Origin: Muribaculaceae bacterium
GTDB lineage: Bacteria; Bacteroidota; Bacteroidia; Bacteroidales; Muribaculaceae
Reading direction: 5' to 3'
Length of the DNA stretch: 39,160 bases
NCBI GenBank assembly: GCA_016290765.1
Contig: JAEEVE010000005.1
Coordinates: 1 to 39,160 of the forward strand
The notes below the pieces were generated by a model. It saw nothing but the letters and a program-made list of their open reading frames with translations, searched no databases and was not told the DNA's origin. Positions 3,009 through 37,114 of this stretch are shown piece by piece; the stretch's first letter is position 1, and every line of letters begins with the position of its first letter. Both the position numbers and the translations under genes were made by a program.

Positions 3009-3037
3009 TCGTCCCCCCAAGTCCCCCTAAAGGGGGG
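3009..3037 (+). repeat. G/C-rich palindromic repeat, copy A
   Basis: TCGTCCCCCC-AAG-T followed by the hairpin CCCCCT-AA-AGGGGG(G). It starts 6 bp after the lipoprotein stop. The reverse complement of this layout is found at 3434-3459, and a longer version in the same orientation at 34458-34496. Confidence 0.8.
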
Positions 3038-3125
3038 TGTAGAAGTGACATAGATTGAAGATGAAATGTGGATTCAGATATAAACCAATGTCTGCGAATT
3101 ATCGGTTTTAGCCGAACACGCTAGA

Positions 3126-3431
3126 TTGATGAGACGACACCCTACTGAGGCTGAAAATTTAATGTGGCATGTATTAAGTGCCAATCAATTTGGCGTAAAT
3201 TTCCGCCGACAACACATTATAGGCGAGTATATTGTTGACTTTGTTTGTATTGCCAAGTCGCTTATCATTGAGATTGATGGAGATTATCACTTGAGTAGCG
3301 AACAGCAAAAGGAAGATGCCACTAGAACAGAATGGCTTGAAAAACAAGGTTTCAAAGTCATTCGCTTCGCAAACGATGAAGTTCTAAATAAAATAGACGA
3401 TGTCATCAAAACCATTGAAACAAATATTTAG
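3126..3431 (+). CDS. DUF559 domain protein (Vsr/MTES-like endonuclease fold), N-terminal frameshift
   Basis: About 100 residues matching DUF559 (PF04480), a restriction-endonuclease-like fold related to very-short-patch-repair nucleases. Family signatures seen: HPTEAENLMWHVL near the start, FRRQHIIGEYIVDFVC with the catalytic-type Asp, and IIEIDGDYH. The frame starts at TTG 3126 with an ATG at 3129, which is short for the family. Upstream, ATG 3061 opens another frame coding MKCGFRYKPMSANYRF, which fits a DUF559 N-terminus but ends at TAG 3109. One extra T in the TTTT run at 3106-3109 would join the two into one ORF (RYKPMSANYRFLAEHARLM). So this is either a recent pseudogene, a sequencing error, or a shortened gene. 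Biological role of the family in Bacteroidetes is not established. Confidence 0.75.
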   Translation: MMRRHPTEAENLMWHVLSANQFGVNFRRQHIIGEYIVDFVCIAKSLIIEIDGDYHLSSEQQKEDATRTEWLEKQGFKVIRFANDEVLNKIDDVIKTIETNI

Positions 3432-3433
3432 TT

Positions 3434-3459
3434 CCCCCTTTAGGGGGGGAGGGGGACGA
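3434..3459 (-). repeat. G/C-rich palindromic repeat, copy B (inverted to copy A)
   Basis: CCCCCTTTAGGGGG followed by GGAGGGGGACGA. Its reverse complement, TCGTCCCCC-TCC-CCCCCTAAAGGGGG, matches copy A at 3009-3037 apart from the short spacer. It begins 2 bp after the DUF559 stop and, in the menA frame, would code SSPFRGGGGR. Confidence 0.8.
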
Positions 3460-3480
3460 CTCCGTGTATGGCTTGAATGC

Positions 3481-4338
3481 ATGCGACTCAGGACCCTGCC
3501 CGTGTCGCTGTCGGGCGCAGTAATGGGCATCGCACTCGCCTGGTGGAACGGGCGTTTCCAGTGGATTCCTGCAGTGCTGTGCCTTGTGTTCGCCTTGCTG
3601 GCTCAGGTGGCGTCCAACTTTGCCAACGAATATTATGATTATCTTCGCGGGGCCGACAAGAAAGGCCGTGTAGGCCCTCGCCGTGGTGTCACCGAAGGCG
3701 ATATCCGCCCCCGCACCCTGCTCATCGTGACCTTTGCCACCCTGGCAGCGGCGGGTGTGGTGGGTTGCTGCCTGATTCCATACGGTGGCTGGTGGCTGTT
3801 GCCCGCGGGCATATTCATCGCCCTGGGTGCGCTGGCCTACAGCACAGGGCCTTACCCGCTGAGCTATCACGGTCTGGGCGAGCTGGCGGTGTTTCTGTTT
3901 TTTGGCGTCATTCCCGTCACGCTCACTTATTATGTGCAGGCGTTACGCTTTGAACCCCTGGTCATCTTGGCATCGATGTCCATTGGTCTGCTGGGGGTGA
4001 ATGTGCTGCTGGTCAACAACTACCGCGACATGGACGATGACCTCGAGGCTGGCAAGCGCACCTCGGTTGTCATCTTCGGGCGCAAACCCGCAGCCGCGGC
4101 CTACCTTATCAACGGCTATGTGGCGATGTGCTTGCTCACCCCGCTGTGGCTCATGTCGGCATTGCTGGGCAATCCCCCCGTGTGGGCACTGGCCGCGCCA
4201 GCCGTTTACCTTGTGCTACACACCATCACCTGGCACCGCCTCACCACGCGCGGTGGCGCCGCCCTCAACCCCCTGCTCGGCGCCACCGCCCGCAACATGC
4301 TCATCTTCACCATTCTCCTCGCCCTGGCACTGGTTTAA
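3481..4338 (+). CDS. menA: 1,4-dihydroxy-2-naphthoate polyprenyltransferase
   Basis: A 285-residue UbiA-superfamily integral membrane prenyltransferase that attaches the polyprenyl chain in menaquinone synthesis. Both Asp-rich prenyl-diphosphate/Mg2+ motifs are present: N49EYYDYLRGAD59 and Y181RDMDDD187, within about eight or nine hydrophobic helices. VGPRRGVTEGDI is typical of MenA. The start is uncertain: ATG 3481 gives MRLRTLPVSLSG, but the codons just before it (VWLEC) still look like the family N-terminus, and the only in-frame start further up is ATG 3400, inside the DUF559 gene, which would read through the palindrome. The native start seems lost where the palindrome unit joins. It ends only 4 bp from the convergent aminotransferase. 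Confidence 0.9.
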   Translation: MRLRTLPVSLSGAVMGIALAWWNGRFQWIPAVLCLVFALLAQVASNFANEYYDYLRGADKKGRVGPRRGVTEGDIRPRTLLIVTFATLAAAGVVGCCLIPYGGWWLLPAGIFIALGALAYSTGPYPLSYHGLGELAVFLFFGVIPVTLTYYVQALRFEPLVILASMSIGLLGVNVLLVNNYRDMDDDLEAGKRTSVVIFGRKPAAAAYLINGYVAMCLLTPLWLMSALLGNPPVWALAAPAVYLVLHTITWHRLTTRGGAALNPLLGATARNMLIFTILLALALV

Positions 4339-9192: not shown

Positions 9193-12100
9193 TTAGCGTT
9201 TGATGACCTTCTTGCCGTTGTGAATGTACAGCCCAGGTGCCGAAGGCTCGGTGGGCAGACGACGGCCGTCGATAGTGTACCAAGCGGGATCGACAGGACC
9301 TGTGGTGACAGTGACCTGGTCGATGGCCGAGAACGATCCGGGGTCGGGCTCGGTGGGCAAGGCCAGGATGTATTCGGCCTCGAGGTCGTAGATGGTATTT
9401 TCCGATTTCAGGAGGTCGGCCGAGGGTATCAAGTAGGAGCGGAAAGCAGGCACCGTGGCCTGTTGCTTGCGCACAAACTTGTTGCCTTCCATCACATAGA
9501 TGTCTTTCATCTCTTGTTCCCAACTGCGGCCTGTCATCAACAACCAACCGGTCATTTTGAATTCGGTCCACGGCATAAAATCGGTGATATATCCCTTGAG
9601 CTCGAACTTGAAGTCATGTCCTGCCATCGATGGGTAGATGAAGTAGAAGTAACCCAATTCCCAAGAATTAGGAATCGACTCGGGTTTTTTGGTTTCGCGC
9701 TGCAGTACGATCGTATTGGGGTGCTGCAAGCCAATCATGGTATAGGGGAAGAGAAGATAAGTCCAGTCTTTACCCGTCGTGAGGTCGGTGACCTTGACAT
9801 AATCGTCTAGTGGAATCCACAAGTTGGCCCAGGTGTTGGCTTCGTCCTGGGCAAAGGAGCGGTAATAATAGATGGAATGATTCTTCTCAACGACGAATTT
9901 TGTGTTGAGCAGCAAGAAGTTGTGGTCGTCATAGATGTTGACATCCTTGCTGCTGTAGCCATCCTTGTTGAGCACATTGTTGTTGTCCAGGCCCTGAATA
10001 CTCTCGGGGTTGTCGACATAGTAAATGGTGTTGGGGCTGCTGTTGGGCGTCACTTCGGTAACGTTAGAACCGATTGCATAGAGCGCGTCATAGCCTTCGG
10101 GCATCACCAGCTTGTCGCTCACCGGTAAAGTCTTGACTTTACCATCGGCGCTGATGGCCACCGCTCCATCGGCAACATCAAAGTCTCCAATGGTTTTATA
10201 GACAGCATTCTTCAAGCGGTCGTTGTAGGCCATCATGATGCGCACACGCTTGACGTTGGTGGGCAAGAAGGCTCTAACTTCCATGGTCACCTCGCTACCA
10301 ACAGGTGCGTATAACGCCTTGGGCGTGACAAATCTCTCATAGACTTCGGCTTCGTTGTCGGGGTTCACTGCTTTCAGAGCCATCATGTCGTTGAAAGTGG
10401 CGTTACCCACATTCACCGCCTTGATATTGCCTAAAATGGCATGAGCACCCACTTTCATGTTTTCCATGTCGATGTTGGTGAGCGACACGTCATAATCCTC
10501 AAATCGCCCTTCGTACACAGTGGGGTCGCCATATACTGCGTGAGTGAGCATGGGGTCGGTATAGACGGTGTAGGACTGATCGGGCATTAAGGGCCACTTC
10601 AGACGGAATTCCACTTGTTGCTCTTCTGCAGCCCGTATGGCGACACATTCCGTACCCTTGAGTTCGTTTTTAGCCACGACATACAGATTGCCGTTAAACT
10701 CGTCGGCAATGTTTTTGACATTAAAGGTGATGCGGGTAATCTTACCATCTTCATTGAGGGTGTTCTGCGGGTTGGTCAGTTGCAGATCCTTGACAGGAAC
10801 AGGCTGCATGGCGATGTTGCCATTGTTCACATCAAACTTGATGTAAATGTTCTCGTTGCTCATCGAGGGATAGATATAGCTGGGATCGTTGGGGGCTCCA
10901 TAGTAGGTTACCAGTCGGTAAGAGCCATCTGCAATGTTGTTGGGAACAACCAGTTTGGCATCGAAACAGTTGTAGTCCTCAGCAATGGTGTTGATTTGCG
11001 AACCGTCGCGTATACTGAATTGGTGAACAAATTCATTATTCTCGTCAACCAGTGCATAGGTCATTCCAGTGGATACGTAGACACCAAAATATATTGTCTG
11101 CACATGTATCAGGGGATAGTTCCCGTCGGCATCACGCGAGATGTTGGGTTCGCTGCAAAGAATCTGATGTGAAATCTGCACAAAGCCTGGGGTTTGATCG
11201 GTAGAACCCTCGACGGGCGGCTGAATGCCAATGATGGCATCTTGGTGCACCGACCAGCGGTTGTTTGCGCCTCCACCTCCAGTGCCAGTACCTTCTGAGT
11301 CGAGAATCGAAAGGACGAAATAACCGTCGCAATCGCCTTCCCAACCCCAGTTGATGTAATATTTTCCGTTGCCATCGTAGCCGTGGCACACAAAACTGTG
11401 TCCCGAGCCCCAAGAAGTCTGGGCATTAAAGATAATGGGGCGATTGTTGGCCAGTTCGTTATACATCATGTCGTCCCACTGGTCGATGGTAAAGTCGTCG
11501 CGGAACAAATAACGCATGCCCTTGTCGTACTTGAAACAGCCCAAAAGTGCAGGCCTGATGAGACGACTGTAAGAGCCCGACTGATCGGCATTGTATTTCA
11601 TGTCAACCGATGCACCAGCCACTTGCATCAATCGTGCGACCGAAGTCACCTGCGACTCGGGGTACTGACCGTTACTATCATAGGTAAGCTGCATGTTGTC
11701 CCAGTCAAAATGCGTCTTGGGAATGGTTTCGTTCTTGGGAGTGACGAAGACATTGGTGCTGTCTTGAGGCCACTTGTGGTAATACATCACCTGCGACATC
11801 GACGTGGCGATGCAGCCTGTGGGCCAATTATTTGGGGTATAGTAGGAGTATGGCCATTCCTGACCCCATTTGGTTTGCATCAGAGGCGGCACAGGGTCGT
11901 GAGTAAGCGCCTTGTGGGGCCTGCTGTCGTGTTGCTGCATATATTCGATTTGCTCGGCATAGCTGGCGAGCATGGTCTGCATGGCTGCAGGGATTGTGGC
12001 GGCGTCGACATTGCCGTTGAGCGAATAGGCGAGCACATCGTCCACGCGGTCATCGCCCGCGACAATGACATATCCTCCACCCTGGGCGTTGAAGGCATAG

Positions 12101-12309
12101 ACCAGGTCGTTGCCGGCATTGAGTGAGGTTGAGGAGGATCTCCACGAAGCGCGTTCCATGGTGCGGACAGCGGCATTTCCTTTTTTCTGTGTCATGAAAG
12201 CCACCGCTTTCTCTTTGGCCTGGCGTGGCGTAAGGGGGGCGGCTTGCGATGTGATTGTAAGAGCCAAGGCTCCTAAAACCAATAACGATGCAAATTTTAA
12301 TGTTCTCAT
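9193..12309 (-). CDS. Secreted C10 family cysteine peptidase (streptopain/interpain-like)
   Basis: A 1038-residue protease. Signal peptide (MRTLKFASLLVLGALALTITSQA), Spi-like propeptide (about 25-115, with GGGYVIVAGDDRVDDVLAYS), then the C10 catalytic domain (about 140-365) with nucleophile C166 in WPTGCIATSMSQVMYY and H304 in SGHSFVCHGYDG, followed by NWGWEGDCDGYF. The remaining 670 residues are beta-rich and look like Ig or surface modules. The end, YTIDGRRLP...GLYIHNGKKVIKR, resembles the short sorting tails of Bacteroidales T9SS cargo. Expected to degrade host or dietary proteins at the cell surface. It is followed 35 bp later by a small lipoprotein gene and preceded, on the same strand, by a secreted protein and an AraC-type regulator. 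Confidence 0.93.
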   Translation of the reverse strand: MRTLKFASLLVLGALALTITSQAAPLTPRQAKEKAVAFMTQKKGNAAVRTMERASWRSSSTSLNAGNDLVYAFNAQGGGYVIVAGDDRVDDVLAYSLNGNVDAATIPAAMQTMLASYAEQIEYMQQHDSRPHKALTHDPVPPLMQTKWGQEWPYSYYTPNNWPTGCIATSMSQVMYYHKWPQDSTNVFVTPKNETIPKTHFDWDNMQLTYDSNGQYPESQVTSVARLMQVAGASVDMKYNADQSGSYSRLIRPALLGCFKYDKGMRYLFRDDFTIDQWDDMMYNELANNRPIIFNAQTSWGSGHSFVCHGYDGNGKYYINWGWEGDCDGYFVLSILDSEGTGTGGGGANNRWSVHQDAIIGIQPPVEGSTDQTPGFVQISHQILCSEPNISRDADGNYPLIHVQTIYFGVYVSTGMTYALVDENNEFVHQFSIRDGSQINTIAEDYNCFDAKLVVPNNIADGSYRLVTYYGAPNDPSYIYPSMSNENIYIKFDVNNGNIAMQPVPVKDLQLTNPQNTLNEDGKITRITFNVKNIADEFNGNLYVVAKNELKGTECVAIRAAEEQQVEFRLKWPLMPDQSYTVYTDPMLTHAVYGDPTVYEGRFEDYDVSLTNIDMENMKVGAHAILGNIKAVNVGNATFNDMMALKAVNPDNEAEVYERFVTPKALYAPVGSEVTMEVRAFLPTNVKRVRIMMAYNDRLKNAVYKTIGDFDVADGAVAISADGKVKTLPVSDKLVMPEGYDALYAIGSNVTEVTPNSSPNTIYYVDNPESIQGLDNNNVLNKDGYSSKDVNIYDDHNFLLLNTKFVVEKNHSIYYYRSFAQDEANTWANLWIPLDDYVKVTDLTTGKDWTYLLFPYTMIGLQHPNTIVLQRETKKPESIPNSWELGYFYFIYPSMAGHDFKFELKGYITDFMPWTEFKMTGWLLMTGRSWEQEMKDIYVMEGNKFVRKQQATVPAFRSYLIPSADLLKSENTIYDLEAEYILALPTEPDPGSFSAIDQVTVTTGPVDPAWYTIDGRRLPTEPSAPGLYIHNGKKVIKR

Positions 12310-15524: not shown

Positions 15525-18500
15525 ATGGTAGAAACACTCATGAAGATGAAAAGATTTATCACCCAAGTGCTAGTGTTGCTGGTGTCGTTTTTGGCTCCGG
15601 TGTCGATGTGTGCTATCAGTGGTTACTATAGCGACCCTGGAGGAGGCTCCTACTGGTGCAATGTGTATGTAGCCACGGTGAGCCACGGCAAGAGTTACAG
15701 TTGGTGCACAGGCATTGCCGAGGACACGGGAATGAACAACTTCCGTGGCTTCGAGAGTGAGCATGACGGCAGGCTCTCGGTTGAGTTTCCAACGATTAAA
15801 ATCAAGTTCAGATATCACTATGGGCAACCCAAGGGCTTTGACAAGAATGGTAGTTCGCAGTCGTTCTATGTGATGACGCGCGGCGGCTCGCTCTACAAGA
15901 TTGGCGAGTGGCCTAAGGGCGGTAACTTCACGCAGACCGACTATACCTATGGTGTGATTGGCGAGGGCAAGATGGAGAACGACTGGATGTCGTTCCGCTA
16001 CACCCCTAACCAGAAGGGTCTTGAACAGGTCACCGCCATACAGATTGAGAATGACACCTACTACAAGCAAGACCATTTTTGGCCTTGGGACACCGACTAT
16101 AGTTTCACCATCCATGCGCGCTATCTGCGAAGCTTGGAGATGGACTTCGCCAAATGTCGTGCCGCCAATGTGGAATGGAATTCTCCTGACCAGATAAAAG
16201 TGGCTGCCGACAATAGTTGGCTGCCCAGTTCGATGGGCAGCAATGTGAGCAACTTCAACTACAAGAGCCACTACAAGGTGACGGTGATGGCCGATGGCAA
16301 GAACTACAGCACCGGCAATTTCAGTGTTACAGGCCGTAGCAATAGTTCGATTGGGTTGAATGTGCCTGCCAACAAGGTCTTTCATGTTGACATCGTGCGA
16401 AACACCACGATTTCCTACAAATACAATGGCCGTGATGTGTCGCTGAATCTCAACGAGAACGAGACTGCGTCTAATGAGTACAACAATACCATCAGCGACC
16501 TCCAAGCGTCGCCCAACCAGGTTGAGGGGACGATGTACCTGTCATGGGGCGGCGGCGGCTCGAGCAGCGACGGCGAGTTCCAGATTTATCGCACCGAACT
16601 TGATGAGCACGGTAACTACCTGGGCAACCGCGTACTCGACGGGACAACGAAAAACAAAAACTTCACCGACAATGCCTCTCGCGGCATGGACATTGGCAAA
16701 TATTACCGCTACGAGGTGTTCAAGAAGTTGAACTCGTGGGGCAATGTGGACATCCCCAGCAACCCCGAACCGCTCACCGTGGTTCATGCCGCCGAGGTTC
16801 GCACCAACACGGTTCCTGTCATCCCCTTGCACCTTGTCCAAGATGCTTCGGTGACCGACAACATCAAGATGGACTGGGAGTTTGGCAACATCCCCAAAGC
16901 CGAGAACGACCTCACCTTCAAGGTTCACCGCATTGAGCCCAACGGCACTATCACCCGTAATTACCTGGATGTGGTTGTACCGCGCAACGCCGGCAAGGCC
17001 AGTTTTACCGACGAGAAACCCGAGTCGCCTTGCTCGACCTATGGCTACTTCCTGCAACTTGACCTCGCCGATAACAGAGTGCATTGCTACAGCGACACCG
17101 TCTATGGCCATGTGCTTGACGGAACGACAGTCACCGCGATGAGCGCCACCAAGGGCACAAGCGGCAATGATGTGATTGTAAAGTGGCGCGCTAAGCAAGT
17201 AGGCACGCAGCCTACTCTCTTTGAGGTGCAACGCCGCTTTGTGGGTGGCGGTGAATGGCTGGTAATCCACGAGCAAGAGGGTACCCTCGCCAACTATACC
17301 TACATCGACAACACCACCGAGCCAGGTCGCTACTACGAGTATCGTGTGGTGGCCTACGCTCCCGACTGCGACAGCGAGGCGCATGTCATCAGCAATGCGA
17401 TGAGCGACGTTGGCTTTGCGCAGGCATCGGGTGTCATCAGCGGCCGTGTACAGTTTGACACGGGCACTGCCGTGAGCGATGTGCGGGTGACCATTTCGCG
17501 CGAGAGCGACCCCATGAGCGGCCAGTCGGCCCACAGTCGCAGCGTGCTGGACAAGTGCGACGCCATCACCTTCAAGAATCTGGGTGAAATTATCGCGCCC
17601 AACAAACCATACACGCTGCAGTTCTACGTGCGTCCCGACCGCAGCAGCGCGACGATGACGCTCATGGAATTTCCCAAGCCGCTGAAGTTGAACTACAACA
17701 GCGACGGCGACATGTTTGATGTCGAGTTTGGCGACAATGTGATTGGTTCCATTCCGGCCAACGACTACACACAGTTGTCGGTGATGAGCGAAGTCAACAA
17801 CATCAAAGCCTACATTGCCGGCAACAAGAATGCCGTGTTTGACGAGGCATTAGCCATTCAGCCTGCGCCATTGATGGACAACGATGACGGCTCCAACTAC
17901 CTTCTCAACGAGAGTGGAACGTCGTTAGACGGATGGACGCTGAATGAAGCAGCCTCAAATCAGTGGATTATTCGTGACGATTCGTTCTGTTCGGGTTACA
18001 ACTATGGTACAGCCCATAAGGATGTCAGTGTGTCTGAATCTATCGTCGGCTCCACGGTCGTGGGCTCGGTCACCATACGTTCGCCCTGGGGGGCACGCGA
18101 AGCGCGTGTCACCGCAACCATGATGGATAGTGTTATGAACACCCTGGGCGCGGTAACCATTTGTGACGACCTGACAGCACATGACGAATGGAAAGAGTAT
18201 ACCACTCAGTTTGAGATAGTGCCCGGAACCAGGACCATCCGATATCTGATTGAGGGCCAAGACAAGCCCAACTGGTCGGGCAACTACGGACCGCAGTTCA
18301 AGAACATGAGTCTCGTTTTAAACAGGGTTGACGGCAACAATCTGGTATTGCTTCCCGATTTCCGCGGCAATGTTGACGAGATTCGCGTGTGGAACCGCGC
18401 CCTCACCGGTCAGGAAATCCTCACCGATGTAGACCGCGTTATCAGCAGCGAGGCCGAAGGGCTGAAGGCGTACATCAACTTTGACGAAGGCCTCAAGGAT

Positions 18501-21500
18501 TATGCGTTCGACATGTCATTGACCAATGGCGTGCCCAACGGTCATCATGTCACCTTGGGACCCAACACGCTGCCCAGCGACTTGATTCCCGCCGAGGCGC
18601 AGTTGTCGTCCTATGGCATCACCAACGACAAGGGCGAATACGAGATTCGCAGCATACCGTTCACAGGCAGCGGCACGCGCTACAGCGTGTATCCCTCCAA
18701 GGGCATCCACTCCTTCTCGCCCACCAGCCGTTCGGCATTCATTGGCGGCACATCGCTCACTATCAACAATGTCGACTTCACCGATGTGTCAAGTTTCAAG
18801 GTGAGTGGCACCATCCGCTACAGCGGCACTACCATTCCTGTCGATAGCGTCAGTTTCTATGTCGACGGCATGCCCTGCAACAAGAACGACAAACTCATCT
18901 ACAGCAACGCCAATGGTGAATATGAGATTTCAGTGCCCATCGGCAGCCACTATATCGAGGCTCGCCGCAGCGGACACACCTTTGAGGGTGCCGGCCGCTA
19001 TCCAGTTGCTGAGAACGAGACCTATGAGTTCCTGAACGACACCCATCTGGACTTCTATGACAACACTCTTGTCACCCTTGCCGGCCGCATTACCGGTGGA
19101 AACACCGAGGGTCAGAAGCCGCTGGGCTATGGCGTGAGCGAGAACACCATTGGCAAGGCCATCATCGCCTTGACGCCCCTCGACCACCCGCAGCGCATGC
19201 TCAATGCCGTGCAGCAGGTGCAAGGCACTACCATCGAATGGATTCCTAATGCCGAGGATGTGGCGGTCGAAAGTGCCTCGATCGACATCAACAGCACAGC
19301 CTACCGCGCCGGTGGCAATGTTGACGACGTGAAATATATCTACATCACCACCGATGAGAAGACGGGTGAGTTCAGCGCCAAGGTGCCACCCATCAGATAC
19401 ATGGTTCACAGCGTGACGTTCCCGAACAATGATGAGTTGAATAACGACGAGCGGTTCATGAACATCCCCGCCGTCAACCTCACCAACCCCAACGACACCA
19501 TTTTACCCGACACCGTTTACACGGCTAACCACGAGCCCTTGCCACTGTTCAAGTGCAACAAGAAGCTCATGCTCACCTATCGCAGCAACCCGGTGATTGA
19601 TATCACCCAGATGGGACTTCCTGCCGGTGCCTTCGGTACCGACACCATCACCGTGCGAGATGCCGGCGAGGACATCAAGCTGCCCATCTACTCCTACAAC
19701 GAGGATACCCATGAGGTGACCTACAACTTTGGCTATCCCATCTTCCAACTAGGTAGGAAGTACACCTTCAAGGTTCGAGCCTACGAGCCCTATCGCAATT
19801 ACGACAAGAGCGATGCAGGAGAGTTGTACACCGACATGCTGCGCGACTCGGTCGTCACCTTTGGCAACGAGTTGGGCGAGGCAGCGCTCATTGTCGCCGA
19901 GGCTACCACTGTCAACGGCGTTTCCGTACAACGCGGCGACATGGCGAAACTCGATCCCGAGCAAGTCAAACTTAACTCCGAGGGCGAAGGCTATTACAAT
20001 TGGACTGCCGGTGTCCCCAGCCTCTCGGCACCCTACACGCGCAACATGAATGCCTCGATGGTCATCGATGGTCAGACCAGGTTGTGGAGCAGCGAGGGCT
20101 TGACTGGCATCACCACCGGCGTGGTACCCACGGGCAACAACTTCATCACCGCTGGACCCAGCCGTGTGCAGATGGTGTTACGCGACCCGCCAGGCGATGG
20201 CTCGAGTGCAACTTGGGCTACCGACTCGGTGACCAGCGACTACACCTACACGGTGCGTGGCATCCACAACAATACCGAGATTGGCGTGGACATCCGCGCC
20301 TCGTTGGAACTTGACTTTATTGCTGGCACAGCTTTCTTTGGAAAGGTGACCTACAACAATATTATCCACGAGAACGCCGTCTCGTGGAAGTATGACGTCA
20401 ACAAGACGTGGGACAAGCACAAGTCGGTCACCTACACCAATGGCGAGTCAACGTCCACCAGTTCAACCATTGACTATGTGGGCCGCGACGGTGATGTGTT
20501 CATCGGATACTCGACCAACTACATTATCGGAGCTGCCGACAAGGTGGGCCTGTTCAAGCAGGATGACGGCTCTTGGGCAATCGACATGCAGGAGACCATG
20601 GCGATGGACGAGAAATTCAATACCCATTTTGAGTTCTCGCAGAGCTACATCGAGAACACGCTGTTCAACAACATCTTGCGTACCCGCAACACCTTGCTCA
20701 AGCACATCAACTCGATGAGCGAGATTGAGGAGAATCCCGCACAGGCCACCTACTACACTTTCCTCACCGAGGATGACCCACGCTATGGCACAAGCAACAG
20801 CGACAAGAAAGTGTGGCTCGAACAGGCCGTGACCGACGGCTTTGATGGTCCCAGTTACTATGCCCGCTTCCCCCAAGGCTATGCAGGCTGCGACAGCGTG
20901 CACTGGTGCAACCAGATTATTGAGCAGTGGAAGAAGACACTTGCCGACAACGAGGAGGACAAGATCAAGGCGTTCAATGACCCGAGCAAGAAAATTGGCA
21001 ACGAGTCGTTTGAGCGAGGTTCGTCCATCACCAAGAGCACAGGCGAGAGTACCAAAGATGTCGACAATTCGGTGGAAGTCTTCTCGACAGGACTGGCCTA
21101 CCGGGGCAAGAACGGCTACCTGCTCGACAAGATGGGTGCCATCATCATCTCGAACACCGACATTGGATACCACCAGACCAAGTACGACGTTGATGAGACA
21201 ACCACCAGCGAAAGGTTCTCTTATACACTCAACGACACGCAGCGTGGCAACGCTCACACGGTAGACATTTTTAAATCGCCCAAGGGCTGGTCACCCATCT
21301 TCCGCACCCGTGGCGGACAGACACGCTGCCCCTACGAAGGCGAGACACGCACCAAGTACTACGAGCCCTTAGGACAGTTGCTCGACTATGCTACGATGAA
21401 GAGCGACAATCCGCACATCTCATTGCCCGTGCGCAACTTTGTCGACATTCCAGCCGGACAAGAGGCGCAGGTGCAGGTAGTGTTCACCAACGAGAGCGAG

Positions 21501-24500
21501 ACCCACGAGGCACTCACCTCGGCCATCGTCTATGTCGATGCAGGTTCCAATCCCGATGGCTTGCAAGTCTACATGGACGGCATGCCGCTGACCAGCGGAG
21601 TCGAGATGTGGATTGAGTACGGTGTACCTATCACCAAGACGCTTAACATCAAGCAGAGCGACAACTCCATCCTTGACTACAACGACATCACCCTGTTCCT
21701 TGCCAACTCGTGCAAGCCCGAGAGGTGGATTTATGAGACCGCGTCGTTCTCGGCCCACTTTGTGCCCGCAGCACCCGATGTGATGCTCAAACTCGACAAG
21801 AACGTGCTCAACCTACGCGCCGTCAACAGTGGCGAGCAAGTCGTCGCCACCATCAGCGACATCAACCGCATGTTCACTGGTTTCAAGGGCGTACGCCTCA
21901 AGTACCGCTTTGCCGGCGACAGCCGTTGGATCACCGCACACGAGTGGCTGACCAAGGCCTCCTACCTCACCGACGGTGTGGAGAACGAGACACAGTCGCT
22001 CCTGCCCACCGACAAGCCCAACATCACCTACGACCTACAATTGCCCAACATCGACGGACTGTATGTTGTCGCTGCCGAGAGTATGTGCATCCTGGGAGGC
22101 AAGGAATATACCGCTATGACCCCAGAATATGAAGTGATTCGCGACACCCGCGGACCCAAGTTGCTGGGACAGGCCTATCCCAACACGGGATTGCTCACAC
22201 CCACCGACGACATCCGCATCAAGTTCAACGAGGACATCCGTGAGAGTTATCTCACAAAGGATGACAACTTCTTCATCACCGGCTCGCTCAACGATGCCCA
22301 GGTCAACCACGATGTGTCGCTGCAGTTCAACGGCACGCCTGTCGAGACCGATGCTTACTTGCCCATTGCCAACACCAGTTTCGCTTCCACGCTATGGCTC
22401 AAGCGCAAGGGCAGCGGCACCATCGTCGAGCATGGCACCGAGGGCAATCAACTCAAGGTCGCCATCAACCAGGCAGGTCATGTTGAAGCCACGATCAATG
22501 AAATTACCATCGAGTCAACGGATGTCGTGCCCATGGACAAGTGGGTGTTCCTCGCGATGAACTATGTCAAGGGTGCGGCCAACCAAAACACGCTCACGGT
22601 GCTCATGGCCGACGACGGCAACGAGACCATGCTCTTCGACGAGGCCATCATGCCCGACTACAACAGCAATGGCCGCTTGACGTTGGGACGCGATTTCACC
22701 GGCATGATGCATGAACTCGTCCTGTGGGCCAAGAACTGCCCCGTGCGCACCCTCTTGGCACAGAAGGATGAGGTGGTAGCGCCCTATCTGCCCGGACTGG
22801 TAGGATACTGGAAGATGAACGAGGGACATGGCACAACGGTGACCGACTATGCACGCTCGCGCAATATGCACTTGCCCGCCGAGTCGTGGAACATCGAGAA
22901 CACCAACCTCGCTGCCCACCTCGACGGCGAGCACACCATCAAGATTCCCATCGGGTCTATTGCTCCTCGCGAGACCGACAGTTATGTGGTCGAGACCTGG
23001 TTCCGTGGCGAGAAGGACATGAACGCCCGCAATACCCTGCTTTCGGTCACCGACCGCCTGTCCATCGGCTTTGACTATGACAACTCGATGATCTTGCACA
23101 TCTATAACGACACCTTGTCGTCGCTCGTGTCCAATGGCCTGCCCATTGTCTTGACCAACGTCAATTACAACGATGGCAACTGGCACCATCTGGCGCTCAA
23201 TGTGCATCGTGGTGTGAGTGCTGTGGTCTATATCGATGGTAAGGCGGTGAAGACCCTTGCCGAGCAGCAACTGCCGGCTCCCGCCGGTGACTATCTCTAT
23301 GTGGGCTCCATCCTCAAGCGCAATGCCGACACCGAGATATTGGAAGAGAAACACAAGTATGTCGGCGACATCGACGAAATTCGTGTGTGGAATGTGGCTT
23401 GCGACGGCACCTCGGTAATTGCCAACCGCTATAACCAGGTTGACACGGCCGACGTGGCGGGATTGATAGCCTACTACCCCATGGAGCGCCAAGTGCTCGA
23501 TGCCAATGGCAACATCATCACCGAGTTCAGCCTCAACAACAAGGCTCCTAAAGCGACACAATTTGGCATCGTTCAAGCTCTGGGCGATGGCGTGGTGAAG
23601 GCCAACACGGCTCCTGCCCTGCGCACCGCCCCGCTCAAGCAGAATCTGGACTTTGAGTACACCGCCTCGAGCAACGAGATTTACATCAACCTGCGCACAC
23701 TGCCGTCGCGCATGCAGGGCAACCTGCTCACTTTCATCGTCAAGAACGTACGCGACATGCAGGACAACCTCTCCGAGACCGTCACCTGGAGTGCCGTGGT
23801 CGACTACAACACCCTGGAATGGGACGAGGAAGGTATCGATGTCGTCAAAGACCGATTGAGCGATTACAACGTCACCGCCGTGCTGCGTAACAAGGGTCGC
23901 GAGAGCGGACACTTTACCATCACAGGACTGCCCAACTGGATTGTGCCGTCAACGGCCGAGGGCGTGCTTGCCCTTGGCGAGAGCCTGCCCATCCAGTTCA
24001 CCTTCGGTGCCGATGCGCCCGTGGGCACTCATCTGGTTTATGCCTATGCCGTCAACGACGACGACATCTGCTCGCCGCTGCTGTTCCGTGTCACCATCAC
24101 CGGCAACGAACCCTTGTGGAGCGTCAACCCTGCCGACTATGAGAGTTCGATGAACATCATCGGACAAATCTACTTCGAAGACAAGATTTGCAGCATCCCC
24201 AACACGCGCATTGCAGCCTTCGTCGATGGCGAGTGCCGCGGCGTAGCATCGCCCCGTCTGGTGACCAGCCGTGACGCTTACTTCGTCAACATGGTTATTT
24301 ATGGCTTACAAGACATCACCCAGTCACAACCCATCACCTTCCGCATCTATGATTCTGAGCAAGGTGTGGTATTGGGCAATGTGGTGACCAAGTACAAGGG
24401 CCAGACGCTGAACTTGACCTATCGTCCCAACGACCTCATTGGCGACTATGACAACCCTGTCATGTGGATTGCATCCGAACAAATTGAGCAAGTGTGCTAT

Positions 24501-25619
24501 CTGCAAAACGGCTGGAACTGGATTTCGCTTTATGCCGAGCCCGACCAGCCCGATCTGGAAAGTGTCTTTGGCCATGCCAAGGTGTTCAACACCATTAAAG
24601 GCAAGGAAGGATTCGCCATGAATAGTGGCACCAAGTGGGCCTCTACAGGTCTCGACACGCTGGCCGTTGGCAACATGTACAAGTTGAAGACTAAGTCCGA
24701 CGTCGTGGTCAACATCTCGGGTAACCGAATTGACACACGCACGGCAACCCAGACCATCTATCCCGGCTGGAACTGGATTGGACCGCTCTCGATCTACAAC
24801 CTGAGCCTAGCCGAGGCCTTTGCCGACCTGAACCCGACCCGCGGTGACATCATCAAGAGCAAGGATCAAGTCGCCTTCTACGACGGCTATAAGTGGGAAG
24901 GCGACCTGGGCGCAGTCGTGCCAGGAATGGGCTACTACTACAAGTCCAACGGAACCGAGGCTGTGACCTTCCGCTATCCCACCATCGATGCCACCTACAA
25001 CCAGGCTCCCGCCCGCGTGGTGCGTGTGCCCGCTCACTCGCCATTCACGCCTGTCGACCATCATCAGTTCAGCGACAACATGAACGTGGTGGCACATGTA
25101 ATGAAGGATGATGTCCTTGTCGATACGCTCACTGTTGCCGCCTTTGTCGACGGTCAGTGCCGCGGAGTCACCGCCGCCACCGACGATGGCTACTACCTGC
25201 TCACTGTTGCTGGCAATGCCGAGGAGACAGGCAAGAAGGTCTACTTTGCCACTGTCATTGACGGCGAGGTGGTGTGGATGAACGAGCACCTGCAATGGGG
25301 CAGCGATGTTGTCTATGGCGACCTTGATGTGCCCAGCATCTTCACCATCGCCAACAGCGGAGTGAATGACGTGAACGCACAGAACAACCAGATAGTTATC
25401 ACACCCACTCTGGTGCATGACATGATTTATGTGAAGTCGGGCAGTGAGTTGAAGTCGGTGCGAGTATTCGCTCCCAATGGTGCCCGCCTCGACGAGGTGA
25501 GCCGAATCAGCGACAACAACACCTCGCTCAACCTGAGCCACCTGCCCGCAGGTGTCTATCTGGTCGAAGCCATCACTGTCAATGGCATGCATGCCGTGAA
25601 ACGTATTGTGAAGCGATGA
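15525..25619 (+). CDS. Giant multi-domain T9SS-type cell-surface protein (3364 residues)
   Basis: The signal peptide is best read from M6 (15540) or M8 (15546): MKRFITQVLVLLVSFLAP. In order: unassigned beta-rich head (to about 320); three fibronectin-III-like modules (about 320-415, 430-535, 535-625, with YYRYEVFKK and YYEYRVVAYAP); a carboxypeptidase-regulatory-like domain from 634 interrupted by a LamG-like module (about 670-995, DEIRVWN at 951) and completed near 1025-1075; a second regulatory-like domain (1092-1170); a large unassigned middle (about 1400-2060); an SbsA-type Ig domain starting near 2207, interrupted by two LamG-like modules (about 2268-2410 and 2456-2640, second DEIRVWN at 2616) and closing near 2710-2770; paired AFVDG(E/Q)CRG modules (about 2902, 3208) around two GWNWI repeats (2996, 3081); and a T9SS type A sorting domain (3280-3364). 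Likely an adhesin or glycan-binding protein. Confidence 0.88.
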   Translation: MVETLMKMKRFITQVLVLLVSFLAPVSMCAISGYYSDPGGGSYWCNVYVATVSHGKSYSWCTGIAEDTGMNNFRGFESEHDGRLSVEFPTIKIKFRYHYGQPKGFDKNGSSQSFYVMTRGGSLYKIGEWPKGGNFTQTDYTYGVIGEGKMENDWMSFRYTPNQKGLEQVTAIQIENDTYYKQDHFWPWDTDYSFTIHARYLRSLEMDFAKCRAANVEWNSPDQIKVAADNSWLPSSMGSNVSNFNYKSHYKVTVMADGKNYSTGNFSVTGRSNSSIGLNVPANKVFHVDIVRNTTISYKYNGRDVSLNLNENETASNEYNNTISDLQASPNQVEGTMYLSWGGGGSSSDGEFQIYRTELDEHGNYLGNRVLDGTTKNKNFTDNASRGMDIGKYYRYEVFKKLNSWGNVDIPSNPEPLTVVHAAEVRTNTVPVIPLHLVQDASVTDNIKMDWEFGNIPKAENDLTFKVHRIEPNGTITRNYLDVVVPRNAGKASFTDEKPESPCSTYGYFLQLDLADNRVHCYSDTVYGHVLDGTTVTAMSATKGTSGNDVIVKWRAKQVGTQPTLFEVQRRFVGGGEWLVIHEQEGTLANYTYIDNTTEPGRYYEYRVVAYAPDCDSEAHVISNAMSDVGFAQASGVISGRVQFDTGTAVSDVRVTISRESDPMSGQSAHSRSVLDKCDAITFKNLGEIIAPNKPYTLQFYVRPDRSSATMTLMEFPKPLKLNYNSDGDMFDVEFGDNVIGSIPANDYTQLSVMSEVNNIKAYIAGNKNAVFDEALAIQPAPLMDNDDGSNYLLNESGTSLDGWTLNEAASNQWIIRDDSFCSGYNYGTAHKDVSVSESIVGSTVVGSVTIRSPWGAREARVTATMMDSVMNTLGAVTICDDLTAHDEWKEYTTQFEIVPGTRTIRYLIEGQDKPNWSGNYGPQFKNMSLVLNRVDGNNLVLLPDFRGNVDEIRVWNRALTGQEILTDVDRVISSEAEGLKAYINFDEGLKDYAFDMSLTNGVPNGHHVTLGPNTLPSDLIPAEAQLSSYGITNDKGEYEIRSIPFTGSGTRYSVYPSKGIHSFSPTSRSAFIGGTSLTINNVDFTDVSSFKVSGTIRYSGTTIPVDSVSFYVDGMPCNKNDKLIYSNANGEYEISVPIGSHYIEARRSGHTFEGAGRYPVAENETYEFLNDTHLDFYDNTLVTLAGRITGGNTEGQKPLGYGVSENTIGKAIIALTPLDHPQRMLNAVQQVQGTTIEWIPNAEDVAVESASIDINSTAYRAGGNVDDVKYIYITTDEKTGEFSAKVPPIRYMVHSVTFPNNDELNNDERFMNIPAVNLTNPNDTILPDTVYTANHEPLPLFKCNKKLMLTYRSNPVIDITQMGLPAGAFGTDTITVRDAGEDIKLPIYSYNEDTHEVTYNFGYPIFQLGRKYTFKVRAYEPYRNYDKSDAGELYTDMLRDSVVTFGNELGEAALIVAEATTVNGVSVQRGDMAKLDPEQVKLNSEGEGYYNWTAGVPSLSAPYTRNMNASMVIDGQTRLWSSEGLTGITTGVVPTGNNFITAGPSRVQMVLRDPPGDGSSATWATDSVTSDYTYTVRGIHNNTEIGVDIRASLELDFIAGTAFFGKVTYNNIIHENAVSWKYDVNKTWDKHKSVTYTNGESTSTSSTIDYVGRDGDVFIGYSTNYIIGAADKVGLFKQDDGSWAIDMQETMAMDEKFNTHFEFSQSYIENTLFNNILRTRNTLLKHINSMSEIEENPAQATYYTFLTEDDPRYGTSNSDKKVWLEQAVTDGFDGPSYYARFPQGYAGCDSVHWCNQIIEQWKKTLADNEEDKIKAFNDPSKKIGNESFERGSSITKSTGESTKDVDNSVEVFSTGLAYRGKNGYLLDKMGAIIISNTDIGYHQTKYDVDETTTSERFSYTLNDTQRGNAHTVDIFKSPKGWSPIFRTRGGQTRCPYEGETRTKYYEPLGQLLDYATMKSDNPHISLPVRNFVDIPAGQEAQVQVVFTNESETHEALTSAIVYVDAGSNPDGLQVYMDGMPLTSGVEMWIEYGVPITKTLNIKQSDNSILDYNDITLFLANSCKPERWIYETASFSAHFVPAAPDVMLKLDKNVLNLRAVNSGEQVVATISDINRMFTGFKGVRLKYRFAGDSRWITAHEWLTKASYLTDGVENETQSLLPTDKPNITYDLQLPNIDGLYVVAAESMCILGGKEYTAMTPEYEVIRDTRGPKLLGQAYPNTGLLTPTDDIRIKFNEDIRESYLTKDDNFFITGSLNDAQVNHDVSLQFNGTPVETDAYLPIANTSFASTLWLKRKGSGTIVEHGTEGNQLKVAINQAGHVEATINEITIESTDVVPMDKWVFLAMNYVKGAANQNTLTVLMADDGNETMLFDEAIMPDYNSNGRLTLGRDFTGMMHELVLWAKNCPVRTLLAQKDEVVAPYLPGLVGYWKMNEGHGTTVTDYARSRNMHLPAESWNIENTNLAAHLDGEHTIKIPIGSIAPRETDSYVVETWFRGEKDMNARNTLLSVTDRLSIGFDYDNSMILHIYNDTLSSLVSNGLPIVLTNVNYNDGNWHHLALNVHRGVSAVVYIDGKAVKTLAEQQLPAPAGDYLYVGSILKRNADTEILEEKHKYVGDIDEIRVWNVACDGTSVIANRYNQVDTADVAGLIAYYPMERQVLDANGNIITEFSLNNKAPKATQFGIVQALGDGVVKANTAPALRTAPLKQNLDFEYTASSNEIYINLRTLPSRMQGNLLTFIVKNVRDMQDNLSETVTWSAVVDYNTLEWDEEGIDVVKDRLSDYNVTAVLRNKGRESGHFTITGLPNWIVPSTAEGVLALGESLPIQFTFGADAPVGTHLVYAYAVNDDDICSPLLFRVTITGNEPLWSVNPADYESSMNIIGQIYFEDKICSIPNTRIAAFVDGECRGVASPRLVTSRDAYFVNMVIYGLQDITQSQPITFRIYDSEQGVVLGNVVTKYKGQTLNLTYRPNDLIGDYDNPVMWIASEQIEQVCYLQNGWNWISLYAEPDQPDLESVFGHAKVFNTIKGKEGFAMNSGTKWASTGLDTLAVGNMYKLKTKSDVVVNISGNRIDTRTATQTIYPGWNWIGPLSIYNLSLAEAFADLNPTRGDIIKSKDQVAFYDGYKWEGDLGAVVPGMGYYYKSNGTEAVTFRYPTIDATYNQAPARVVRVPAHSPFTPVDHHQFSDNMNVVAHVMKDDVLVDTLTVAAFVDGQCRGVTAATDDGYYLLTVAGNAEETGKKVYFATVIDGEVVWMNEHLQWGSDVVYGDLDVPSIFTIANSGVNDVNAQNNQIVITPTLVHDMIYVKSGSELKSVRVFAPNGARLDEVSRISDNNTSLNLSHLPAGVYLVEAITVNGMHAVKRIVKR

Positions 25620-33172: not shown

Positions 33173-34444
33173 ATGGCTGAATCAAGAAGAAAACAATTGT
33201 TCCCCGATGTCACCGACGAGCAGTGGAATGACTGGAAATGGCAGGTGAAAAACCGCATCGAGACACTGGAACAACTCAAAAAATACGTTAGCCTGACGGC
33301 CGAGGAGGAAGAAGGCGTGAAGAAGACGCTGACCACCCTGCGCATGGCCATCACGCCCTACTATCTGAGCCTTATCAACCCCGATGACCCACACGACCCC
33401 GTGCGTCGTCAGTGCATCCCCACTGGCCTTGAGACCCATCAGGCCGCTGCCGACCTGCTCGACCCGCTGCACGAGGACGAGGATTCGCCCACACCGGGTC
33501 TGACGCATCGTTATCCCGACCGCGTACTGTTCCTCATCACCGATATGTGCTCGATGTACTGCCGTCACTGCACCCGTCGCCGCTTTGCTGGCCAGACCGA
33601 CAACGAGTGTGGCATGGACCGCATCGAAAAGGCACTGGAGTATATCGAGAAGACCGAGTGCGTGCGCGACGTGCTGCTCTCGGGCGGTGACGCCCTGATG
33701 GTAGCAGACTCGCGTCTGGACTACATCATGTCGCGTCTGCGCGCCATTCCCCATGTGGAGATTATCCGCTTGGGTACCCGCACACCCGTTGTGTGCCCGC
33801 AGCGCATCACGCCCGAACTGTGCGCTACGCTCAAGAAGTACCACCCCGTGTGGCTGAACACCCACTTCAACCATCCCAACGAGGTGACCGCCGAATCGCG
33901 TCGTGCTTGCGAGATGCTCGCCGATGCCGGTGTGCCCCTGGGCAATCAGAGTGTGTTGCTGCGTGGCGTCAACGACTGCGTGCATGTAATGAAGCACCTG
34001 GTGCATGAGTTGGTCAAGATGCGTGTGCGTCCCTACTACATCTACCAGTGCGACCTGTCGATGGGTCTGGAGCACTTCCGCACCCCTGTGTCGAAGGGCA
34101 TCGAGATCATTGAAGGACTGCGTGGTCACACCTCGGGCTACTGCATCCCGACGTTCGTCGTCGATGCACCTGGTGGCGGTGGCAAGACTCCCGTCATGCC
34201 GCAGTATGTCATCTCGCAAGCTCCTGGCAAGGTCGTGTTGCGCAACTTTGAGGGCGTTATCACAACCTACACCGAGCCTACCGAGTATCACAGCGAGTGC
34301 AACTGCCCCGACTGCCAAGCTGCACGCAAGCAGGAGCAGGTGGCTGCCGACAAGGCTGTGGACGGTGTCATCTCGTTGCTTGAAGGCGAGCGCATGAACA
34401 TCGAGCCCAAGGCTCTGAAGCGCCACGAGCGCAACGCGAAGTAG
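33173..34444 (+). CDS. kamA: L-lysine 2,3-aminomutase
   Basis: A 423-residue radical-SAM, PLP-dependent enzyme that converts L-lysine to L-beta-lysine, the first step of lysine fermentation. The [4Fe-4S] cluster motif is C126-x3-C130-x2-C133 (MCSMYCRHC); SAM-binding GGD is in LLSGGDALM; PLP lysine K338 is in DAPGGGGKTP. D294 (YQCDLSMG) and D331 (FVVDAPGG) correspond, with a one-residue offset, to the two Asp that hold the lysine side-chain amine in the clostridial enzyme, supporting lysine rather than glutamate or arginine as substrate. A Cys-rich tail (ECNCPDCQ, about residues 375-382) fits the C-terminal zinc site of the family. It follows the kdd-kamA repeat array and precedes a solo palindrome and kamB. 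Confidence 0.97.
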   Translation: MAESRRKQLFPDVTDEQWNDWKWQVKNRIETLEQLKKYVSLTAEEEEGVKKTLTTLRMAITPYYLSLINPDDPHDPVRRQCIPTGLETHQAAADLLDPLHEDEDSPTPGLTHRYPDRVLFLITDMCSMYCRHCTRRRFAGQTDNECGMDRIEKALEYIEKTECVRDVLLSGGDALMVADSRLDYIMSRLRAIPHVEIIRLGTRTPVVCPQRITPELCATLKKYHPVWLNTHFNHPNEVTAESRRACEMLADAGVPLGNQSVLLRGVNDCVHVMKHLVHELVKMRVRPYYIYQCDLSMGLEHFRTPVSKGIEIIEGLRGHTSGYCIPTFVVDAPGGGGKTPVMPQYVISQAPGKVVLRNFEGVITTYTEPTEYHSECNCPDCQAARKQEQVAADKAVDGVISLLEGERMNIEPKALKRHERNAK

Positions 34445-34457
34445 TCCTAACCATCCC

Positions 34458-34496
34458 TCGTCCCCGTCCCCCTACCCCCCTAAAGGGGGGTAGGGG
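34458..34496 (+). repeat. G/C-rich palindromic repeat, solo copy C
   Basis: TCGTCCCCGTC then a perfect 13-bp-arm palindrome at 34469-34496 (arm CCCCTACCCCCCT, AA loop). It shares the TCGTCCCC lead and the CCCCCTAAAGGGGG core with copies A and B at 3009 and 3434. It lies in the 66-bp gap between kamA and kamB, with no DUF559 gene nearby. Confidence 0.85.
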
Positions 34497-34510
34497 AGCT
34501 AACAACTATC

Positions 34511-35518: not shown

Positions 35519-35522
35519 ACCT

Positions 35523-36866: not shown

Positions 36867-36971
36867 ACCGTGAATTGCACAAACTTGTTCTGTTTTTAAA
36901 CGTGAATTCCGCCAAACATTTTGTATAATTCGTTGTCTCAAACGAAAATTCGGGACAATCGAGGTTAGATT

Positions 36972-37003
36972 GTTGCCTAATTAAGGAATTTTGGCTAAAT
37001 TTG
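36972..37003 (+). promoter_or_regulatory. Promoter of kamDE
   Basis: GTTG (36972-36975), 20 bp, TAAATTTG (36996-37003): fits the Bacteroidetes consensus with one mismatch in the -33 box. The leader before ATG 37115 would be about 105 nt. Confidence 0.65.
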
Positions 37004-37059
37004 CAGCGGCGTAGTAACGTCCGTTGTTCTCAAGCGTTATTCAGATGCCGACACCTTTC

Positions 37060-37079
37060 CCTTACTTGAAAAAGTGAGG
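37060..37079 (+). promoter_or_regulatory. GAAA-tetraloop hairpin in the kamD leader
   Basis: CCTTACTT (37060-37067), loop GAAA, AAGTGAGG (37072-37079): 8 pairs with one G-T. It lies in the 5' leader of the B12-dependent mutase genes, 35 nt before the start codon. I do not see a cobalamin riboswitch core, so any regulatory role is unproven. Confidence 0.4.
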
Positions 37080-37114
37080 CGATGTAACTCGTTAACCATC
37101 ATAAACATAAACAT

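What the first reader, a model, noticed from the sequence alone, without database searches (positions are those of the whole stretch)
3009..3459. Palindrome - DUF559 nuclease - inverted palindrome: a candidate undescribed mobile unit
Two related G/C-rich palindromes in opposite orientation (TCGTCCCCC lead plus CCCCCTAAAGGGGG core) tightly bracket a single gene for a DUF559 endonuclease-fold protein. The unit is visibly more A/T-rich than its surroundings and abuts menA. A solo, longer palindrome of the same kind sits at 34458-34496. The layout recalls REP sequences with their RAYT transposases, but the enzyme here is of the Vsr-like nuclease fold. Inference: DUF559 proteins may act on, or spread with, this palindrome family.
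Basis: partly seen in the sequence, partly recalled or inferred. Interest (0 to 1): 0.78.

Follow-up and report, generated by a model that had tools for sequence, protein, structure and literature searches.

The report
Palindrome-bracketed mobile nuclease genes
A small nuclease gene sits between two matching DNA palindromes and appears to travel with them as one unit; relatives of this unit occur in many bacterial phyla, sometimes in frame inside essential enzymes, which makes this nuclease a candidate for the missing enzyme behind some long-unexplained bacterial repeats.

Summary
Palindromes at 3023-3036 and 3434-3447, in opposite orientation, bracket a DUF559 (Vsr-like) nuclease gene; 0.14 such matches are expected per window. 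The own genome has 44 copies, some in gene-less pairs with the same ends. Sequences differ but share a design, a lead mirroring a hairpin arm, as in E. coli BoxC triplex repeats. 28 of 99 copies lie in frame in longer frames, 27 with a host domain (LeuS, ValS, MetH, HsdR, others). One ValS site is found empty, with a solo palindrome, or with DUF559 in one genus; an aminotransferase has an empty paralogue in the same genome. The nuclease is under purifying selection. Best reading: a homing-type mobile element without intron or intein. That DUF559 drives it is inferred. The window copy looks frameshifted, and genomes with this exact 14-mer do not significantly more often hold DUF559.

The parts
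3011..3022 (+). left outer lead of the unit (GTCCCCCC + linker)
   Evidence: 28 of 30 own-genome copies examined have a run of four C or G on the outer side, 3 of 30 on the inner side
3023..3036 (+). left hairpin core CCCCCTAAAGGGGG
   Evidence: 44 exact copies in the own genome, 0 of the reversed control
3061..3111 (+). remnant of the N-terminal part of the DUF559 reading frame, in another frame than the rest, ending in a stop
   Evidence: sequence compared by eye with L034/L035
3084..3431 (+). open frame with the DUF559 (Vsr-like) nuclease domain; listed ORF 3126-3431 (TTG)
3434..3447 (-). right hairpin core (CCCCCTTTAGGGGG on +)
3450..3457 (-). right outer lead (AGGGGGAC on +)
3400..4338 (+). 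menA; frame open from ATG 3400 through the right palindrome; the native start seen in relatives is not there
   Evidence: 0 of 23 genus relatives with a match have the unit
34458..34496 (+). solo, longer palindrome of the same family

Best explanation
The 447-bp unit at 3011-3457 is a damaged copy of a mobile element made of one nuclease gene between two inverted ends; each end is a C-rich lead next to a hairpin. SHOWN: the gene and such ends occur together at most DUF559 loci examined; orthologous sites are found empty, with a solo palindrome, or with the nuclease; the nuclease is under purifying selection and related copies sit in different host genes and phyla; the own genome has short pairs with the same ends and no gene between them (five read). 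INFERRED: the DUF559 nuclease, of Vsr / EDxHD homing endonuclease fold, cuts an empty target in a conserved gene or intergenic site and repair from the occupied copy writes the element in. The ends would be recognised as hairpins or triplexes or serve as short homology, and solo or paired palindromes would be derivatives that lost the gene. In coding sequence the element survives where it is a multiple of three without stops and falls in a tolerant loop, so it needs no intron or intein.
For: Inverted-repeat test: 54 of 96 loci above 13, the 99% point of 4251 shifted controls. Hairpins on both flanks: 69 of 97, against 16 of 2093 controls, 0 of 30 PF13366 and 0 of 29 PF05635 genes. 28 of 99 copies embedded in frame (at least 60 open codons on both sides), 27 of the 28 with a host Pfam domain. 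ValS in the 9 genomes of one genus: 7 empty, 1 solo, 1 DUF559. Aminotransferase: 480 bp in L036 against 54 bp in L308, a paralogue in the same genome with flanks 96 and 95% identical, and in 7 other relatives; 7 further relatives were not read by my motif. MetH sites 1 and 2 occupied in different combinations in six loci. dN/dS 0.05-0.19 in the 7 of 15 pairs with dS 0.2-2. Tree: LeuS occupancy needs at least 3 changes on supported branches; HsdR copies of a planctomycete and an archaeon are sisters; L036 (DegT) and L037 (epimerase) are sisters. Fold: 3hrl E 2.8e-7, I-Bth0305I 3r3p E 4.9e-5; sequence profile 3r3p E 3.1e-5.
Against: No cutting, binding or movement was observed. No target-site duplication at the sites compared; a few loop codons are lost or replaced. 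G118 (12 copies of the 14-mer) and G146 (7) have no DUF559 match; the genome-level link is not significant. In five Flavobacterium genomes the end sequence is rare (2, 2, 4, 1, 6 places, up to 3 mismatches), so spread of gene-less copies is not general. 21 of 96 loci meet neither criterion. The mirror lead has no preference for the outer side (p 0.45). Two E. coli BoxC sites gave replacement of the intergenic region, not a clean insertion. Loci are not all independent (for example L034 and L061, L086 and L089), and no phylogenetic weighting was done.
Confidence: 0.68

Rival explanations
1. Passenger model: the palindromes are moved by another enzyme (a REP-type Y1 transposase or another transposase) or by replication and recombination, and DUF559 is one of several genes caught between two of them.
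For: Genomes with several copies of the exact 14-mer but no DUF559 match; no significant genome-level link; pairs with other short contents in the own genome (C77, C152); no target duplication or proof of cutting.
Against: The gene class follows the repeat class: C-hairpins on both flanks at 69 of 97 DUF559 but 0 of 30 GxxExxY and 0 of 29 IVP genes, which have other inverted repeats. Passengers would not be expected to be under purifying selection nor to be the same nuclease in many phyla.
Confidence: 0.22
2. Host-function model: DUF559 is a Vsr-like repair or structure-processing enzyme that acts on triplex- or hairpin-forming repeats and lies near them for that reason; the repeats are not its ends.
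For: Vsr among the structural matches (1cw0, 1vsr, E about 0.02); a DUF559 Vsr-like protein in Caulobacter is responsible for an SOS response in cells without a methyltransferase (PMC12907096, passages); the E. coli DUF559 gene has BoxC-type repeats on one side only.
Against: In-frame embedding in unrelated enzymes and patchy presence (20 of 149 family genomes, 16 of them with a full-length match) fit a mobile gene better.
Confidence: 0.07
3. Chance or hitchhiking of GC-rich terminators on both sides of a small gene.
For: Downstream hairpins often are terminators (general knowledge); C-hairpins on at least one flank occur in 256 of 2093 controls.
Against: Both flanks in 69 of 97 against 16 of 2093; inverted similarity up to score 120 at +1 per match (L075); embedded in frame in 27 host genes.
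Confidence: 0.02

Closest known systems
EDxHD / Vsr-like homing endonucleases (I-Bth0305I, PDB 3r3p)
   Same: Fold and sequence similarity; recurrent occupation of the same sites in conserved genes; DUF559 has been placed in this family before (PMC9403480, passages).
   Different: No intron or intein seen around it; the gene is bracketed by palindromes and, in genes, lies in frame.
REP / REPIN sequences with RAYT transposases (REPtrons)
   Same: Palindromes in inverted pairs around one enzyme gene, gene-less copies in the genome.
   Different: The enzyme is a Vsr-like nuclease, not a HUH Y1 transposase; no GTAG tag.
BoxC / PIT / TMECO intrastrand triplex motif of E. coli and more than 260 genomes (PMC4666352; abstract, passages and section 19 read)
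   Same: A lead that mirrors the hairpin arm; 18 matches at up to 3 mismatches (11 exact; reversed control 1) in one E. coli, 3 of them just downstream of a DUF559 gene.
   Different: That paper reports no mobility genes near the motif and names no enzyme in what I read; here a candidate enzyme is proposed.
Rickettsia palindromic elements (RPE)
   Same: Palindromic elements in frame in protein genes (PMC10969869 and PMC3733652, passages).
   Different: About 150 bp, and no nuclease is mentioned in the passages read; their sequences were not compared here.
CGTC-tagged REPs (PMC3733652; abstract and passages)
   Same: Short inverted palindromes, also reported in Bacteroidetes; the two window ends happen to read CGTC.
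   Different: The C of the tag is not constant in the own genome; stem design differs.

Membership tests
DUF559 (PF04480) | Pfam model above gathering score | tested here: met
   116.5 bits, cut-off 20.6
EDxHD homing endonuclease family | fold of I-Bth0305I | tested here: met
   AF2 model of the open frame 3084-3428, pLDDT 90.7; 3r3p E 4.9e-5, TMt 0.76; profile E 3.1e-5
EDxHD homing endonuclease family | E, D, H, D active-site residues | tested here: inconclusive
   E24, D52, H69, D78 invariant in A1 (14 sequences) and A4 (39); that these are the named residues is recalled, and 3r3p has W where DUF559 has H
EDxHD homing endonuclease family | lies in a self-splicing intron or intein | tested here: inconclusive
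   Pfam lists no intein or intron domain in the 28 embedded frames; splicing was not otherwise tested and Rfam was not searched
EDxHD homing endonuclease family | cuts the unoccupied allele | not testable with these tools
   needs protein
REPtron (RAYT + REP) | HUH Y1 transposase in the bracketed gene | tested here: not met
   the gene is DUF559; a Y1 transposase elsewhere in the genome was not searched for
REPtron (RAYT + REP) | GTAG tag on the palindrome | tested here: not met
   leads are (G)TCCCC
CGTC REP | CGTC tag and 8-9 bp stem with A/T pairs at its first positions | tested here: not met
   base before GTCCCC varies and the stem is a C-run; definition from PMC3733652 passages
BoxC-type triplex motif | lead is a mirror of the hairpin arm | tested here: met
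   128 asymmetric arms: mirror better 52, direct better 17, equal 59 (p 2.9e-5); no preference for outer over inner side (p 0.45)
Insertion sequence / MITE | terminal inverted repeats | tested here: met
   54 of 96 loci
Insertion sequence / MITE | target-site duplication | tested here: not met
   none seen at the DegT, ValS or MetH sites
Rickettsia palindromic elements | in-frame insertion in protein genes | tested here: met
   28 of 99 loci, for the DUF559 family, not for the window copy's own gene

The most novel reading that the evidence does not exclude
Bacteria harbour a class of minimal selfish elements that need only one small protein and a pair of structure-forming ends: each of several families (DUF559, GIY-YIG and GxxExxY nucleases, and the four-helix 23S-IVP proteins) has its own class of inverted repeat, and such elements home into essential genes and stay there in frame, without splicing. 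DUF559 would be the dedicated mover of BoxC-type triplex repeats and GIY-YIG that of the CGTC REPs, two repeat classes for which the papers seen here name no enzyme.
Probability: 0.4. Interest if true: 0.94.

Novelty: new variant of a known kind. Interest (0 to 1): 0.86.

Why it matters
[quoted passage not shown] abstracts and passages). A nuclease bracketed by such repeats in about 15 phyla makes that question testable. It also suggests that a nuclease domain of about 105 residues can be carried inside LeuS, ValS, IleS, MetH or AroA with the host enzyme presumably still working, which bears on protein evolution and on the annotation of 'fusion' enzymes.

Tried and rejected
Target-site duplication was sought at two E. 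coli BoxC sites (alternative BoxC and REP intergenic regions, not clean insertions; 1300 and 270 of 5375 genomes with a match cover at least 80% of the query), in Sinorhizobium (a difference of about 345 bp runs through the DUF559 gene, so it is no empty site) and Azospirillum (the 7 records that cover most of the query all span the place). A direct-copy test of the lead (59 of 185 hairpins) was weak; the mirror test was run afterwards because a triplex third strand should be a mirror, so it is a second look at the same loci. Genome-level association of the exact 14-mer with DUF559: not significant. Copies of the end in Flavobacterium: few.

Rows dropped: 2 of 99 loci (N or short flanks); 3 of 99 (L065, L078, L101, with N). 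The 57 of 99 include L101, whose score is a run of N, so 54 of 96 is the clean count. In one search, 5 of 24 places are short, Vsr-like or unrelated matches (L048-L051, L054) and were left out. In one search, 7 of 15 aminotransferase relatives and L069, L081, L082 of ValS were not read by my motif. For GIY-YIG, 6 of 30 loci with long UvrC-like frames (L247-L250, L258, L261) were left out. L097 stays 'free' in the tree. 19 of the 99 loci are from the window's family, among them the window's own two genes; 80 are the best of at least 583. The PF13366 and PF05635 sets are best-scoring loci of one phylum and were not matched for GC; phyla of the 99 were assigned by me from record titles, with Desulfuromonadales and the like under Proteobacteria.

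Considered and rejected: assembly chimaeras (in-frame copies also in cultured strains, Flavobacterium cucumis L056 and Hyunsoonleella ulvae L077); plain terminators.

Papers: 14 held papers contain DUF559, none in title or abstract; passages were read in PMC9403480, PMC12907096 and PMC12308824, the other 11 not opened. Two of the 14 also contain 'palindrom' (PMC8861277, PMC9454445) and were not opened. No paper linking DUF559 to palindromes was seen in the listings; most subscription journals are not held. PMC6006769 passages were read. The I-Bth0305I paper was not held. Recalled, not from a call: the names menA, ycjD and RIME, BoxC for the E. coli repeat, and host names such as LeuS, IleS or MetH beyond their Pfam domains.

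Full report
WHAT IS THERE. The window holds a DUF559 gene between two C/G palindromes in opposite orientation and a third, solo palindrome at 34476-34489. The pattern is not chance (0.14 matches expected). The unit runs from GTCCCCCC at 3011 to GGGGGAC at 3457, 447 bp. Its gene part is more A/T-rich than its surroundings (GC 0.373 against 0.540). The reading frame looks shifted near its start, so this copy may be inactive. The unit lies at the start of menA: in 23 genus relatives with a match the protein starts M-K-R-x-x-K-I-W or similar (read by eye) and none has a C/G hairpin in the 500 bp before it; in the window the frame runs open through the right palindrome from ATG 3400. The gene before menA is not visibly the same in the relatives, so the exact empty site of this unit was not seen.

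OWN GENOME. The genome (2.87 Mb, 313 contigs) has 44 exact 14-mers and none of the reversed control. Of 30 examined, 28 have a run of four C or G on the outer side and 3 on the inner side. Five are read as pairs of 24-95 bp spacing without a gene (C10, C38, C77, C99, C152). The pair of C99 folds strongly as single-stranded DNA (z -4.9). Two DUF559 matches exist; both have the 14-mer within 120 bp, the second on one side only, beside an array of another palindrome.

GENERALITY. A family search found PF04480 matches in 20 of 149 genomes, 16 with a full-length match, and a scan of species genomes gave 80 named loci, the best of at least 583. With 19 from the family this makes 99 loci. A test of inverted similarity between 300 bp upstream and downstream gave 54 of 96 usable loci above 13, the 99% point of 4251 shifted controls. 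Hairpins with C-rich arms lie within 200 bp on both sides at 69 of 97 and on at least one side at 88 of 97, against 16 and 256 of 2093 controls. By group, either criterion: Bacteroidota 41 of 54, Proteobacteria in the wide sense 14 of 20, Patescibacteria 4 of 4, twelve other named groups together 13 of 15 (Auribacterota 0 of 1, Chloroflexota 1 of 2, one archaeon 1 of 1), unassigned 3 of 3; 75 of 96 in all. The palindromes differ in sequence from locus to locus; what is shared is the design, in which the lead mirrors the hairpin arm (mirror better in 52, direct better in 17, equal in 59 of 128 asymmetric arms). That is the design of the BoxC intrastrand triplex (PMC4666352).

SPECIFICITY. GxxExxY (PF13366) and 23S-IVP (PF05635) genes of the same phylum have C-hairpins on both sides in 0 of 30 and 0 of 29, but have inverted repeats of other classes: score above 13 in 12 of 30 and 11 of 30. 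Small GIY-YIG genes from 20 genomes of Proteobacteria in the wide sense have inverted repeats above 13 in 14 of 24 against 0 of 272 controls, 10 of the 14 with GTCAT or its complement.

INSIDE GENES. 28 of 99 DUF559 copies have at least 60 open codons on either side in the same frame; 27 of these 28 have a host Pfam domain (all but L110): class I tRNA synthetases 11, methionine synthase 6, HsdR 2, epimerase 2, and one each of DegT, EPSP synthase, MazG, AMP-binding, HsdM and a class II tRNA synthetase. In the class I synthetases the place is alike, just before a TTRP-type motif, as far as the printed junctions show. Alleles: ValS 7 empty, 1 solo, 1 DUF559 in the 9 genomes of one genus; an aminotransferase with the unit and an empty paralogue in the same genome, flanks 96 and 95% identical, with 7 more empty relatives and 7 not read; MetH site 1 occupied in L056, L058, L062, L066, L091 and empty in L063, site 2 occupied in L062, L063, L066 and without the DUF559 unit in L056, L058, L091. 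The net insertion in the aminotransferase is 426 bp, 142 codons. No target duplication is seen; the empty aminotransferase site has a G-rich stretch like the end of the unit.

THE PROTEIN. Purifying selection: dN/dS 0.09, 0.08 and 0.12 for three MetH-embedded pairs and 0.05-0.19 over the 7 of 15 pairs with dS between 0.2 and 2; one further pair gave 0.04 at dS 2.1, six were saturated and one nearly identical. A confident model of the open frame (pLDDT 90.7) matches 3hrl and the homing endonuclease I-Bth0305I best; Vsr follows at E about 0.02. The tree is only partly resolved (109 columns, bootstrap not settled), but LeuS occupancy needs at least three changes on supported branches, HsdR copies of a planctomycete and an archaeon are sisters, and copies in unrelated genes are sisters (DegT and epimerase; LeuS and acetyl-CoA synthetase). 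In L066 the copies at MetH sites 1 and 2 are more alike (0.85) than either is to the other copies compared (at most 0.82).

AGAINST. Genomes with the 14-mer do not significantly more often have DUF559 (3 of 11 against 17 of 138, p 0.17; 3 of 11 against 13 of 138, p 0.098, full-length matches only). G118 (12 copies) and G146 (7) have no match. In five Flavobacterium genomes the end sequence has 2, 2, 4, 1 and 6 places, the element's own ends included. 21 of 96 loci meet neither criterion. The mirror lead shows no preference for the outer side (p 0.45). The comparison sets were not matched for GC and loci are not all independent.

VERDICT. The finding is real and larger than the window. A mobile unit of a Vsr-like nuclease and structure-forming palindromes is well supported; that the nuclease drives it is the best inference, not shown.

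Noticed in passing
L238, L242, L244, L246, L253, L255-L257, L260 and others: Small GIY-YIG nuclease genes are bracketed by inverted, mostly CGTC-type REPs: 14 of 24 above the cut-off, 0 of 272 controls. A candidate enzyme for CGTC REPs.
   Followed up: partly
L135, L139, L143, L147, L152, L153, L159: GxxExxY (PF13366) genes bracketed by inverted CACAGAG-like repeats; three matches of the family lie in 883-aa frames in G174, G202 and G186.
   Followed up: partly
L170, L173, L176, L178, L182, L184: 23S-IVP four-helix genes (PF05635) bracketed by a third kind of inverted, TAG-rich or similar repeats.
   Followed up: partly
L229 and L268, L269, L280: The DUF559 gene of E. coli KE47 has three BoxC-type repeats within 300 bp downstream and none in the 260 bp printed upstream; gabT-gabP and argE-ppc exist with BoxC or with REP sequence in the strains compared.
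   Followed up: partly
L092: An HsdM frame holds a DUF559 insert and, further on, a RHSREGGNP peptide that looks like a translated CGTC REP.
   Followed up: no
L042: An EPSP synthase frame carries a DUF559 insert among several translated copies of a repeat.
   Followed up: no
L056, L058 (MetH site 2): The sites without DUF559 contain other short repeat-like stretches (CTTCCAA repeats; TCGAGCGGAGTCGA), as if the loop takes up several repeat classes.
   Followed up: no
window 33173-38671: The solo palindrome lies in what looks like a lysine-degradation cluster (lysine 2,3-aminomutase, MutS-domain protein, D-lysine 5,6-aminomutase alpha).
   Followed up: no
window 15525-25619: A 3364-aa frame with only Laminin_G-type domains recognised at E 1e-5.
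   Followed up: no
window 9193-12309 (-): C10 peptidase with a Spi inhibitor domain in one 1038-aa frame.
   Followed up: no
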